A stretch of DNA of 64,000 nucleotides, taken from contig NC_056042.1 of the NCBI RefSeq assembly GCF_004379255.2, positions 11,269,901 to 11,333,900 on the forward strand. Reading direction: 5' to 3'. Made by a program: the position numbers and the translations under genes. This stretch comes from Salvia splendens. Lineage: Eukaryota; Streptophyta; Magnoliopsida; Lamiales; Lamiaceae. Below the pieces are notes generated by a model. It had not been told where the DNA came from and did not search any database. It saw only the letters and a list, made by a program, of their open reading frames with translations. Below, one piece after another: positions 50,913-61,617 of this stretch (its first letter is position 1; every line of letters begins with the position of its first letter).

Positions 50913-51799
50913 GAATCTCCAGAAGAGATGAAATGCCGCAAGTCCCGGTGATCGTTTGTGAAATTTTCGATGTTTGGGGAATGGACTTCATGGGTCCATT
51001 TCCATCATACATACTAGTGGTAGTGGATTATGTTTCGAAATGGATAGAAGCCAAGGCGACCACATCTTGCGAAGCTAAGGAGGTATCGAAGTTTCTTAAA
51101 GCTAATGTCTTCAATCGGTACGGAGTGCCCAGAGCTATAATATCTGACAATGGGACACATTTCCGCAACCGGACTATTGAAGCTTTGATGAGAAAGTATG
51201 GCGTCCACCGCAGATTGTCTACACCTTATCATCCTCAATCTAGCGGCCAGGCAGAAATATCAAACAGAGAAATCAAAGCGATCCTGGAAAAAACGGCGAA
51301 TCCGTCGAGGAAAGACTGGAGCAAGAGAATTGATGATGCATTATGGGCATACAGAACAGCGTATAAAACGCCCATTGGAATGTCTCCTTACAGGTTAGTA
51401 TTCGGTAAGATGTGTCACTTACCGGTGGGAATTGAGCACAAGGCGTACTAGGCGGTCAAGGAGATTAATATGAATCCTCAAGCTTGTGAGGAAGAGAGGA
51501 AACTGCAACTCCAGGAGTTGGAAGAATTGCGACTTGAATCCTATGAGTCAGCAATGTGGTACAAGGAAAAGACCAAGTTGGGGCATGATAAGAATCTCCG
51601 GACCAAGGAACTGCAAGTGGGGCAGAAGGTTCTCCTGTTCCAGTCCCGACTCAAGTTAATGCCCGGTAAGCTGAAGTCCAAATGGACTGGACCATACACT
51701 GTTGTGAGTCTGCGTGCGAACGGAGCGGTAGAAATCCAGGGAAGTTTTTCAAATTTTCGATGAACGGAGCGGTAGAAATCCAGGGAAGTTCTCCTAGGG
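50913..51799 (+). pseudogene. Array unit 1
   Basis: In frame with upstream pol. TAG at 51449-51451 replaces a Trp codon. It has private residues not seen in units 2-12: VVVDY (others VAVDY), FLKANVF (others FLRANVF), EKTANP (others EKTVNP) and KLGHDK (others KLWHDK or KLWHEK). ORF ends at the junction, SNFR then stop. Confidence 0.93.
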
Positions 51800-52686
51800 G
51801 AATCTCTAGAAGAGATGAAATGCCGCAAGTCCCGGTGATCGTTTGTGAAATTTTCGATGTTTGGGGAATGGACTTCATGGGTCCATTTCCATCATACATA
51901 CTAGTGGCAGTGGATTATGTTTCGAAATGGATAGAAGCCAAGGCGACCACATCTTGCGAAGCTAAGGAGGTATCGAAGTTTCTTAGAGCTAATGTCTTCA
52001 ATCGGTACGGAGTGCCCAGAGCTATAATATCTGACAATGGGACGCATTTCCGCAACCGGACTATTGAAGCTTTAGTGAGAAAGTATGGCGTCCACTGCAG
52101 ATTGTCTACACCTTATCATCCTCAATCTAGCGGCCAGGCAGAAATATCAAACAGAGAAATCAAAGCGATCCTGGAAAAAACGGTGAATCCGTCAAGGAAA
52201 GACTGGAGCAAGAGAATTGATGATGCATTATGGGCATACAGAACAGCGTATAAAACGCCCATTGGAATGTCTCCTTACATGTTAGTATTCGGTAAGATGT
52301 GTCACTTACCGGTGGGAATTGAGCACAAGGCGTACTGGGCGGTCAAAGAGATTAATATGAATCCTCAAGCTTGTGAGGAAGAGAGGAAACTGCAACTCCA
52401 GGAGTTGGAAGAATTGCGACTTGAATCCTATGAGTCAGCAATGTGGTACAAGGAAAAGACCAAGTTGTGGCATGAAAAGAATCTCCGGACCAAGGAACTG
52501 CAAGTGGGGCAGAAGGTTCTCCTGTTCCAGTCCCGACTCAAGTTAATGCCCGGTAAGCTGAAGTCCAAATGGACTGGACCATACACTGTTGTGAGTCTGC
52601 GTGCGAACGGAGCGGTAGAAATCCAGGGAAGTTTTTCAAATTTTCGATGAACGGAGCGGTAGAAATCCAGGGAAGTTCTCCTGGGG
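51800..52686 (+). pseudogene. Array unit 2
   Basis: Open from an ATG at 51682 in the previous unit to 52650 (322 codons). Private: VHCRLST, PYMLVF, KLWHEKN. Starts GAATCTCTAG, a variant shared only with unit 12. Confidence 0.93.
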
Positions 52687-53573
52687 GAATGTCCAGAAGA
52701 GATGAAATGCCGCAAGTCCCGGTGATCGTTTGTGAAATTTTCGATGTTTGGGGAATGGACTTCATGGGTCCATTTCCATCATACATACTAGTGGCAGTGG
52801 ATTATGTTTCGAAATGGATAGAAGCCAAGGCGACCACATCTTGCGAAGCTAAGGAGGTATCGAAGTTTCTTAGAGCTAATGTCTTCAATCGGTACGGAGT
52901 GCCCAGAGCTATAATATCTGACAATGGGACGCATTTCCGCAACCGGACTATTGAAGCTTTGATGAGAAAGTATGGCGTCCACCGCAGATTGTCTACACCT
53001 TATCATCCTCAATCTAGCGGCCAGGCAGAAATATCAAACAGAGAAATCAAAGCGATCCTGGAAAAAACGGTGAATCCGTCGAGGAAAGACTGGAGCAAGA
53101 GAATTGATGATGCATTATGGGCATACAGAACAGCGTATAAAACGCCCATTGGAATGTCTCCTTACAGGTTAGTATTCGGTAAGATGTGTCACTTACCGGT
53201 GGGAATTGAGCACAAGGCGTACTGGGCGGTCAAGGAGATTAATATGAATCCTCAAGCTTGTGAGGAAGAGAGGAAACTGCAACTCCAAGAGTTGGAAGAA
53301 TTGCGACTTGAATCCTATGAGTCAGCAATGTGGTACAAGGAAAAGACCAAGTTGTGGCATGATAAGAATCTCCGGACCAAGGAACTGCAAGTGGGGCAGA
53401 AGGTTCTCCTGTTCCAGTCCCGACTCAAGTTAATGCCCGGTAAGCTGAAGTCCAAATGGACTGGACCATACACTGTTGTGAGTCTGCGTGTGAACAGAGC
53501 GGTAGAAATCCAGGGAAGTTTTTCAAATTTTCGATGAACGGAGCAGTAGAAATCCAGGGAAGTTCTCCTGGGG
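52687..53573 (+). pseudogene. Array unit 3
   Basis: Open 52569-53537. Junction variant GAATGTCC (GMSRRDE). Tail RVNRAVEIQ. Confidence 0.93.
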
Positions 53574-58895: not shown

Positions 58896-59782
58896 GAATC
58901 TCCAGAAGAGATGAAATGCCGCAATTCCCGGTGATCGTTTGTGAAATTTTTGATGTTTGGGGAATGGACTTCATGGGTCCATTTCCATCATACATACTAG
59001 TGGCAGTGGATTATGTTTCGAAATGGATAGAAGCCAAGGCGACCACATCTTGCGAAGCTAAGGAGGTATCGAAGTTTCTTAGAGCTAATGTCTTCAATCG
59101 GTACGGAGTGCCCAGAGCTATAATATCTGACAATGGGACGCATTTCCGCAACCGGACTATTGAAGCTTTGGTGAGAAAGTATGGCGTCCACCGCAGATTG
59201 TCTACACCTTATCATCCTCAATCTAGCGGCCAGGCAGAAATATCAAACAGAGAAATCAAAGCGATCCTGGAAAAAACGGTGAATCCGTCGAGGAAAGACT
59301 GGAGCAAGAGAACTGATGATGCATTATGGGCATACAGAACAGCGTATAAAACGCCCATTGGAATGTCTCCTTACAGGTTAGTATTCGGTAAGATGTCTCA
59401 CTTGCCGGTGGGAATTGAGCACAAGGCGTACTGGGCGGTCAAGGAGATTAATATGAATCCTCAAGCTTGTGAGGAAGAGAGGAAACTGTAACTCCAGGAG
59501 TTGGAAGAATTGCGACTCGAATCCTATGAGTCAGCAATGTGGTACAAGGAAAAGACCAAGTTGTGGCATGATAAGAAACTCCGGACCAAGGAACTGCAAG
59601 TGGGGCAGAAGGTTCTCCTGTTCCAGTCCCGACTCAAGTTAATGCCCGGTAAGCTGAAGTCCAAATAGACTGGACCATACACTGTTGTGAGTCTGCGTGC
59701 GAACGGAGCGGTAGAAATCTAGGGAAGTTTTTCAAATTTTCGATGAACGGAGAGGTAGAAATCCAGGGAAGTTCTCCTGGGG
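58896..59782 (+). pseudogene. Array unit 10
   Basis: TAA at 59489-59491, plus two further stops in the tail (TAG 59666-59668 from a Trp codon, TAG 59720-59722 from a Gln codon). QFPV, KRTDDA, KMSHL. Confidence 0.93.
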
Positions 59783-60669
59783 GAATCTCCAGAAGAGATG
59801 AAATGCCGCAAGTCCCGGTGATCGTTTGTGAAATTTTCGATGTTTGGGGAATGGACTTCATGGGTCCATTTCCATCATACATACTAGTGGCAGTGGATTA
59901 TGTTTCGAAATGGATAGAAGCCAAGGCGCCCACATCTTGCGAAGCTAAGGAGGTATCGAAGTTTCTTAGAGCTAATGTCTTCAATCGGTACGGAGTGCCC
60001 AGAGCTATAATATCTGACAATGGGACGCATTTCCGCAACCGGACTATTGAAGCTTTGGTGAGAAAGTATGGCGTCCACCGCAGATTGTCTACACCTTATC
60101 ATCCTCAATCTAGCGGCCAGACAGAAATATCAAACAGAGAAATCAAAGGGATCCTGGAAAAAACGGTGAATCCGTCGAGGAAAGACTGGAGCAAGAGAAT
60201 TGATGATGCATTATGGGCATACAGAACAGCGTATAAAACGCCCATTGGAATGTCTCCTTACAGGTTAGTATTCGGTAAGATGTGTCACTTACCGGTGGGA
60301 ATTGAGCACAAGGCGTACTGGGCGGTCAAGGAGATTAATATGAATCCTCAAGCTTGTGAGGAAGAGAGGAAACTGCAACTCCAGGAGTTGGAAGAATTGC
60401 GACTTGAATCCTATGAGTCAGCAATGTGGTACAAGGAAAAGACCAAGTTGTGGCATGATAAGAATCTCCGGACCAAGGAACTGCAAGTGGGGCAGAAGGT
60501 TCTCCTGTTCCAGTCCCGACTCAAGTTAATGCCCGGTAAGCTGAAGTCCAAATGGACTGAACCATACACTGTTGTGAGTCTGCGTGCGAACGGAGCGGTA
60601 GAAATCCAGGGAAGTTTTTTAAATTTTCGATGAACGGAGCGGTAGAAATCCAGGGAAGTTCTCCTGGGG
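59783..60669 (+). pseudogene. Array unit 11
   Basis: Open from the ATG at 59743 to 60633 (the usual upstream start is lost to the stops in unit 10). KAPTS, GQTEIS, KWTEPY; GILE. Confidence 0.93.
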
Positions 60670-61617
60670 GAATCTCTAGAAGAGATGAAATGCCGCAAGT
60701 CCCGGTGATCGTATGTGAAATTTTCGATGTTTGGGGAATGGACTTCATGGGTCCATTTCCATCATACATACTAGAGGCAGTGGATTATGTTTCGAAATGG
60801 ATAGAAGCCAAGGCGACCACATCTTGCGAAGCTAAGGAGGTATCGAAGTTTCTTAGAGCTAATGTCTTCAATCGGTACGGAGTGCCCAGAGCTATAATAT
60901 CTGACAATGGGACGCATTTCCGCAACCGGACTATTGAAGCTTTAGTGAGAAAGTATGGCGTCCACCAGATTGTCTACACCTTATCATCCTCAATCTAGCG
61001 GCCAGGCAGAAATATCAAACAGAGAAATCAAAGCGATCCTGGAAAAAACGGTGAATCCGTCGAGGAAAGACTGGAGCAAGAGAATTGATGATGCATTATG
61101 GGCATACAGAACAGCGTATAAAACGCCCATTGGAATGTCTCCTTACAGGTTAGTATTCGGTAAGATGTGTCACTTGCCGGTGGGAATTGAGCACAAGGCG
61201 TACTGGGCGGTCAAGGAGATTAATATGAATCCTCAAGCTTGTGAGGAAGAGAGAAAACTGCAACTCCAGGAGTTGGAAGAATTGCGACTTGAATCCTATG
61301 AGTCAGCAATGTGGTACAAGGAAAAGACCAAGTTGTGGCATGATAAGAATCTCCGGACCAAGGAACTGCAAGTGGGGCAGAAGGTTCTCCTGTTCCAGTC
61401 CCGACTCAAGTTAATGCCCGGTAAGCTGAAGTCCAAATGGACTGGACCATACACTGTTGTGAGTCTGCGTGCGAACGGAGCGGTAGAAATCCAGGGAAGT
61501 TTTTCAAACTCTACTCCATTTCTTGTCAATGGCCATAGGGTAAAGGTATTTAGGGATAACTCGGAGATGTGTGTAGTGGACGAAGTTCCACTACGCGTAC
61601 TCCCTAATATCGCCTGA
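60670..61617 (+). pseudogene. Array unit 12 and authentic pol C-terminus
   Basis: Starts GAATCTCTAG as in unit 2. A 2-bp deletion near 60965 shifts the frame within the core, so the open pieces are 60630-60998 and 60955-61617. After TTTTTCAAA (61508) it continues, without junction, to the real end of Athila pol (FLVNGHRVKVFRDNSE … PNIA), which matches the end of pol in element A. Confidence 0.94.

What the first reader, a model, noticed from the sequence alone, without database searches (positions are those of the whole stretch)
50913..61508. A retrotransposon integrase domain turned into a 12-copy, 887-bp tandem array
Seen: twelve head-to-tail copies of the catalytic core plus GPY/F module, starting right after the zinc-binding region, inside an otherwise collinear Athila pol. 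Known: satellites have been derived from LTRs and 3' UTRs of gypsy elements. Amplification of a coding domain at this scale inside the element is unusual, and I know of no described case matching this one. Inference: a nascent satellite, or a locus expanding by unequal exchange.
Basis: partly seen in the sequence, partly recalled or inferred. Interest (0 to 1): 0.9.

Follow-up and report, generated by a model that had tools for sequence, protein, structure and literature searches.

The report
Twelve-copy integrase array, apparently no longer growing
In this plant genome assembly (likely scarlet sage), one retrotransposon carries twelve head-to-tail copies of its own integrase-coding segment, joined by a sequence found nowhere else in that assembly; the array was likely started by one error-prone DNA-repair event, likely multiplied about when the element inserted, and probably has not grown since.

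Summary
In detail: window 50908-61508 holds 12 head-to-tail copies (887-bp period, 97-99% identity) of an integrase-coding segment, inside a Ty3/gypsy element with both LTRs, a 5-bp target-site duplication and an empty-site paralogue in the same window. The junction looks like one event: a 41-46-bp patchwork of pieces that recur within the unit. All 11 junction matches in the genome lie in this array; 30 of 30 fetched relatives have one copy in the 4.1 kb held for each. Two results change the reading. Copies alternate (odd/even markers), so growth involved two-unit steps. No pair of copies is recent: the closest differ at 9 of 841 sites, and private changes per copy (0.585%) match LTR divergence per lineage (0.604%). 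So the array likely formed near the insertion time and shows no later duplication; it is neither a dispersed satellite nor visibly expanding. Best mechanism: polymerase-theta-like repair made the first duplication, then unequal exchange multiplied it early. Reads of the likely source assembly average 7.4 kb, shorter than the array, so the number 12 is not certain. Tandem repeats derived from retrotransposons, one of them gag-related, are known; an integrase-coding one did not appear in my search listings.

The parts
28507..31344 (+). Uninterrupted paralogue of the sequence in which the element sits: the empty site
   Evidence: 28507-30692 matches 39316-41513 (96.8%) and 30688-31344 matches L009 4818-5475 (97.6%), with a 5-bp overlap at 30688-30692
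41509..41513 (+). Target-site duplication GCCGC, left copy (right copy at L009 4818-4822)
   Evidence: present once in the empty-site paralogue
41514..42302 (+). 5' LTR, first piece
   Evidence: 98.352% to L009 3245-4033 over 789 bp
42303..44948 (.). Later insert of about 2.6 kb in the 5' LTR, with an inverted relative at 6848-9466
   Evidence: 96.6% over 2630 bp
44949..45732 (+). 5' LTR, second piece
   Evidence: 99.235% to L009 4034-4817 over 784 bp
45836..47050 (+). gag open frame
   Evidence: Pfam Retrotrans_gag, E 2.8e-19
49265..50194 (+). Reverse transcriptase and start of RNase H, open-frame piece
   Evidence: Pfam RVT_1, E 8.3e-32; RT_RNaseH
50648..50907 (+). Integrase zinc-binding region, single copy, native sequence before the array
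   Evidence: Pfam Integrase_H2C2, E 3.3e-14
50908..61508 (+). The array: 12 copies, 887-bp period, starts at 50908 + 887 x (n-1)
50908..51753 (+). Copy 1, native part of the unit (in-frame stop at 51449-51451)
51754..51794 (+). First of 11 junction fillers; with overlapping shared ends it is a patchwork of pieces also found at 50961-50972 (12 bases), 51718-51746 (29 bases) and 51629-51636 (8 bases, weak)
   Evidence: chance of a 12-mer 0.0002, of an 8-mer 0.03
60665..61508 (+). Copy 12, with a 2-bp deletion, running on into native sequence
61509..61617 (+). Native 3' end of the integrase frame, single copy
62219..63708 (+). Two open frames between pol and the 3' LTR (a further one in L009); no Pfam match for the two in the window
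   Evidence: PF20167 E 3.9e-4 but below its cut-off for L009 628-1524

Best explanation
The array in this assembly is twelve tandem copies of one retrotransposon's integrase-coding segment, likely begun by a single polymerase-theta-like repair event that made the first tandem duplication, likely multiplied in steps of two units by unequal exchange near the time the element inserted, and with no later duplication visible. Shown: 12 copies in the assembly, one shared junction that is a patchwork of unit pieces, odd/even marker alternation, no recent pair of copies, private divergence equal within error to LTR divergence, junction found at one locus only, frame shift of +2 at each repeat. Inferred: that the patchwork came from DNA repair and not from reverse transcription, that unequal exchange and not rolling-circle synthesis did the multiplying, that the plant itself has 12 copies. 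The array is predicted to have no integrase function: copy 1 has an in-frame stop and each repeat changes the frame.
For: The same filler stands at all 11 internal borders and is built of pieces that recur within the unit, with 1-3-base overlaps between pieces (12-, 29- and 8-base matches): one founding event. All 12 copies carry the same 15-bp deletion that 0 of 30 family loci carry. Parity: 25 of 26 minority alleles at 8 shared columns fall on one parity per column, shuffle p = 0.0023. At those 8 columns the ancestral state is in at least 28 of 30 family loci and no array-derived allele is in any of the 30, so they likely arose in the array. Timing: 62 private changes over 10,598 copy-sites (0.585%) against 19 differences over 1573 LTR sites (0.604% per lineage), ratio 0.97, 95% interval 0.57-1.72. 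Closest pair 9 of 841. PMC8654963 (passages): tandem duplications of about 100 bp to 10 kb, median about 1 kb, with theta-type junctions in a nematode helicase mutant (rare in wild type), and patchwork templated insertions called very frequent in plants.
Against: Patchwork junctions can also come from reverse-transcriptase or replication-fork switching; the 8-base piece is weak (3% by chance) and one search lists other 8-9-base matches elsewhere in the element. Clustering of shared variants along the array, expected of stepwise growth, is only suggestive (16 state changes against a shuffle mean of 22, p = 0.063); columns 13, 280 and 400 do not fit contiguous growth. The clock: copies lie on average 1.14% from the commonest family allele (2 fixed plus 7.6 of 841) while the element's own flanks lie 24 of 3246 (0.74%) away, and root-to-tip depth within the array (0.90%) exceeds the LTR figure; either the array mutates faster or its first duplication predates the insertion. 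With flank-unique changes pooled with the LTRs the ratio is 1.21 (0.77-1.92).
Confidence: 0.6

Rival explanations
1. Reverse-transcription origin: abnormal strand transfers inside the virus-like particle made the patchwork junction and several copies, and the element integrated with the array already in it.
For: Private divergence per copy equals LTR divergence (ratio 0.97), as expected if the copies were born at integration; the order of the pieces also fits repeated jumps of a minus-strand polymerase back to the 3' side (my reading). Macas et al. 2009, as cited in PMC7004042 (passages), proposed such transfers for 3'UTR repeats.
Against: Eight variant columns shared within the array need time or very error-prone synthesis. 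No second element with the junction was found in the genome (11 of 11 hits here). The interval 0.57-1.72 also allows formation after insertion.
Confidence: 0.15
2. Rolling-circle or break-induced replication on a two-unit circle laid down most copies in one step.
For: Odd/even alternation and near-starlike divergence.
Against: Variants shared by subsets of one parity class (599T in 4,6,8,10; 372 derived in 5,7,9,11; 313A in 5,7) suggest intermediate stages, so one step alone is not enough.
Confidence: 0.12
3. Assembly artefact: copy number, order or even the array is a product of long-read assembly.
For: Mean read length 7.4 kb in the likely source assembly against a 10.6-kb array; no reads could be examined here.
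Against: Copies carry 3-9 private substitutions each with the same transition share as the family (42 of 70 against 369 of 574, p = 0.51) and one indel; three junctions have a one-base variant; no N in the window.
Confidence: 0.1
4. Nascent satellite still expanding.
For: Dimeric alternation resembles higher-order repeats of satellites.
Against: One locus; no recent pair (at least 9 of 841); no visible homogenisation.
Confidence: 0.05

Closest known systems
Tandem repeats in the 3' untranslated region of Tat/Ogre elements and satellites grown from them (PMC7004042, passages read)
   Same: Tandem array inside an otherwise collinear Ty3/gypsy element; seen there as the seed of satellites
   Different: There non-coding and carried by many elements; here coding, 887 bp, found in one element
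CRM1TR/CRM4TR of maize (PMC3648361, passages and the discussion section read)
   Same: Tandem repeats of a gypsy element, proposed to start by illegitimate recombination and grow by recombination
   Different: From the LTR-UTR border, in or near centromeres, locally homogenised; here integrase-coding, inside an element with both LTRs, not visibly homogenised
250-bp centromeric repeat of wheat and rye related to the Cereba gag gene (Cheng and Murata 2003, as described in PMC3648361; the paper itself not held)
   Same: Related to a coding part of a gypsy element
   Different: Centromeric repeat family, gag; here integrase, one locus, 1-2% divergence between copies
Theta-mediated tandem duplications (PMC8654963, passages read)
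   Same: Duplication of about 1 kb with theta-type junction; patchwork templated insertions are described for plants
   Different: Duplications described in a nematode mutant; here 12 copies in a plant

Membership tests
Ty3/gypsy LTR retrotransposon | Two LTRs, short target-site duplication, gag, and RT before integrase | tested here: met
   LTRs and TSD GCCGC with empty-site paralogue; Retrotrans_gag, RVT_1, RNase H, H2C2, rve in that order
Athila lineage | Reverse-transcriptase phylogeny | not tested
Athila lineage | Extra open frame between pol and 3' LTR (recalled feature) | tested here: inconclusive
   Open frames present; no Pfam match for two of them, PF20167 E 3.9e-4 but below cut-off for a third
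Satellite DNA | Arrays at several loci, free of the parent element | tested here: not met
   11 of 11 junction matches, up to 3 mismatches, lie in this one array inside the element
Satellite DNA | Ongoing homogenisation of copies | tested here: not met
   Pairwise 9-19 of 841, private changes 3-9 per copy
Higher-order (dimeric) repeat | Alternating monomer types | tested here: met
   Parity shuffle p = 0.0023 on 8 columns
Theta-mediated tandem duplication | Templated, patchwork filler with microhomology at the junction | tested here: met
   (pieces overlap by 1-3 bases); chance rates; not specific to theta
Theta-mediated tandem duplication | Dependence on polymerase theta | not testable with these tools
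   Needs genetics

The most novel reading that the evidence does not exclude
The array was built inside the virus-like particle: reverse transcriptase switched templates repeatedly, multiplied the integrase segment, and the enlarged element (about 23.8 kb against about 14 kb without the 11 extra copies, my arithmetic, nested insert left out) integrated already carrying the array. That would make retrotransposon replication itself a direct maker of coding-domain tandem arrays.
Probability: 0.15. Interest if true: 0.75.

Novelty: new variant of a known kind. Interest (0 to 1): 0.45.

Why it matters
How satellite arrays begin is an open question. Here the founding junction, an odd/even growth pattern and an internal clock (the LTRs of the same element) sit in one locus, so the birth of an array can be timed against the insertion of its element. 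If the reading holds, it is one case of a 12-copy array that formed about when its element inserted and then did not go on to become a satellite.

Tried and rejected
A functional multi-integrase protein was rejected: 887 is not a multiple of 3, so each repeat shifts the frame by +2, and copy 1 ends at an in-frame stop. Two different parent RNAs as the source of the odd/even types is not supported: none of the derived alleles is seen in any of the 30 family loci; unsampled relatives could still carry them, since 39 of 3549 candidates were scored and the best 30 fetched. Sequencing noise as the source of copy differences was rejected: the transition share equals that of the family and the copies differ by one indel. 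A second tandem integrase duplication was suspected at C1:20.526-20.529 Mb; L051 shows a 1526-bp direct duplication 3.2 kb apart with 1.7 kb between, about 73% like this family, not a head-to-tail array. A search for sister elements with the 15-bp deletion was asked twelve times and never answered (listed below). The split of private changes (8 synonymous, 48 not, 3 stops, of the 59 of 62 that fell in whole codons) shows no sign of purifying selection on the copies.

Literature: I saw listings of titles and abstract openings, capped (25 of 35 papers, 6 of 6, 5 of 6, 15 of 168, 10 of 18, 20 of 23, 3 of 3); no integrase-coding array appeared. Of the listed papers I opened PMC7004042, PMC3648361 and PMC8654963. 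PMC8408255 was opened by its DOI. Most subscription papers are not held, so this is weak evidence of absence. The potato centromere paper and Cheng and Murata 2003 were not held.
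Full report
What is there. Window 50908-61508 holds 12 head-to-tail copies with an 887-bp period (885 in the last interval) and 97-99% identity. The first copy follows the integrase zinc-binding domain in one frame. Pfam finds the rve core in the frames of copies 1 and 2; a truncated frame of copy 12 gave no match; the other nine were not scanned and are judged by identity. The last copy runs on into the native end of the integrase frame. The window has no N.

The element. The array lies in a Ty3/gypsy element: 5' LTR at 41514-42302 plus 44949-45732, interrupted by a later insert of about 2.6 kb; 3' LTR of 1573 bp at L009 3245-4817, beyond the window. 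The target-site duplication is GCCGC, and the same window holds an uninterrupted paralogue of the target (28507-31344) with that 5-mer once at the site. gag, RT, RNase H, zinc-binding and rve domains follow in gypsy order.

The genome. Unnamed here. Total 805.9 Mb, 22 large contigs and a contig C1 of 47,130,199 bases agree closely with Salvia splendens v2.0 (PMC8408255, passages read). That is an inference. Its reads averaged 7.4 kb, so the mean read does not span the array and the number 12 is not secure.

The junction. All 11 internal borders carry the same filler, three of them with one changed base in the 33-base probe. Read 5' to 3' at the first border it is native sequence, then 12 bases also found at 50961-50972, 29 bases also found at 51718-51746, 8 bases also found at 51629-51636, then the unit start; neighbouring pieces overlap by 1-3 bases. 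Random 12-mers occur in the unit at 0.0002 and 8-mers at 0.03, and one search lists other 8-9-base matches elsewhere in the element, so the first two pieces are firm and the third is weak. Such patchwork suggests repeated template switching by one polymerase. PMC8654963 (passages) reports tandem duplications of about 100 bp to 10 kb with theta-type junctions in a nematode helicase mutant, rare in wild type, and says that theta products in plants very frequently are patchworks. I therefore infer theta-type repair for the founding duplication; reverse-transcriptase switching is not excluded.

One locus, one ancestor. A 33-base junction probe with up to 3 mismatches gave 11 matches in the genome, all in this array (8 exact, 3 with one mismatch; control 0). 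A DNA search scored 39 of 3549 candidates, at 96-97% identity; the best 30 were fetched. 30 of 30 have one unit copy in the 4.1 kb held for each, and 0 of 30 have the 15-bp deletion that all 12 array copies share. These 30 are the closest relatives by score, not a random sample.

Growth in twos. Of 70 variable columns, 62 are private to one copy and 8 are shared. The shared alleles alternate: 25 of 26 minority alleles fall on one parity per column (p = 0.0023 by shuffling copies). Against the 30 family loci the derived states are seen only in the array: 281G in 2, 4, 6, 8-12; 514A in 1, 2, 3, 5, 7, 9, 11; 599T (which makes a stop codon) in 4, 6, 8, 10; 372 derived in 5, 7, 9, 11; 313A in 5, 7; 13T in 2, 12; 280A in 2, 9, 12; 400A in 2, 8. 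The first five sets are runs within a parity class, as unequal exchange by two units would give; the last three are not, and the test for contiguity is only suggestive (p = 0.063). Copies 2, 9 and 11 combine 281G with 514A, which hints at exchange between the two types.

Timing. Private changes: 62 over 10,598 copy-sites, 0.585% per copy. LTRs: 13 of 789 plus 6 of 784, 0.604% per lineage. Ratio 0.97, interval 0.57-1.72. At 1.3e-8 per site and year, the rate used in PMC8408255, both are near 0.45 My. The closest two copies differ at 9 of 841. So the last duplications fall near the insertion, and no later duplication or homogenisation is visible; losses of copies would not show. Results that weaken this: root-to-tip depth within the array is 0.90%, more than the LTR figure; copies average 1.14% from the commonest family allele, while the element's flanks stand at 24 of 3246 (0.74%) and family members at 0.59% in the unit. 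Private changes alone against flank-unique changes do not differ significantly (59 and 12, p = 0.17); pooled with the LTRs the ratio is 1.21 (0.77-1.92). Either the array gathers changes faster or its first duplication is older than the insertion.

Real variation. Array changes have the same transition share as family singletons (42 of 70 and 369 of 574, p = 0.51), which argues against sequencing noise.

Function. Each repeat shifts the frame by +2 and copy 1 has an in-frame stop. Of the 59 private changes that could be classed, 8 are synonymous, 48 not, 3 stops. I predict no protein function.

Known kinds. Tandem repeats from gypsy elements are well known: 3'UTR repeats of Ogre (PMC7004042, passages), LTR-UTR repeats of maize CRM, gag-related repeats of wheat and rye, and retrotransposon-related potato repeats (all three as described in PMC3648361). 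No integrase-coding array appeared in the capped listings. I rate it a new variant of a known kind.

Noticed in passing
50908-61508 against 49151-50907 and 61513-63050: Array copies lie farther from the family (mean 1.14%) than the element's own flanks do (0.74%), although the unit is the slower part in family members; a faster substitution rate in the array is possible.
   Followed up: partly
42303-44948 and 6848-9466: An insert of about 2.6 kb in the 5' LTR has an inverted relative about 33 kb away at 96.6%; near its right end are 2.8 exact copies of a 24-bp repeat (44887-44953).
   Followed up: no
L051 3638-5163 and 6867-8392: In a related family (about 73% alike) a 1526-bp stretch with the integrase core is duplicated directly at 99.7% with 1.7 kb between the copies.
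   Followed up: partly
7-2626: A second, more distant relative of the same pol region (72-74% identity) lies at the left end of the window.
   Followed up: no
17097-17293: Three near-perfect 65-bp tandem copies (99%), next to a 41-bp repeat.
   Followed up: no
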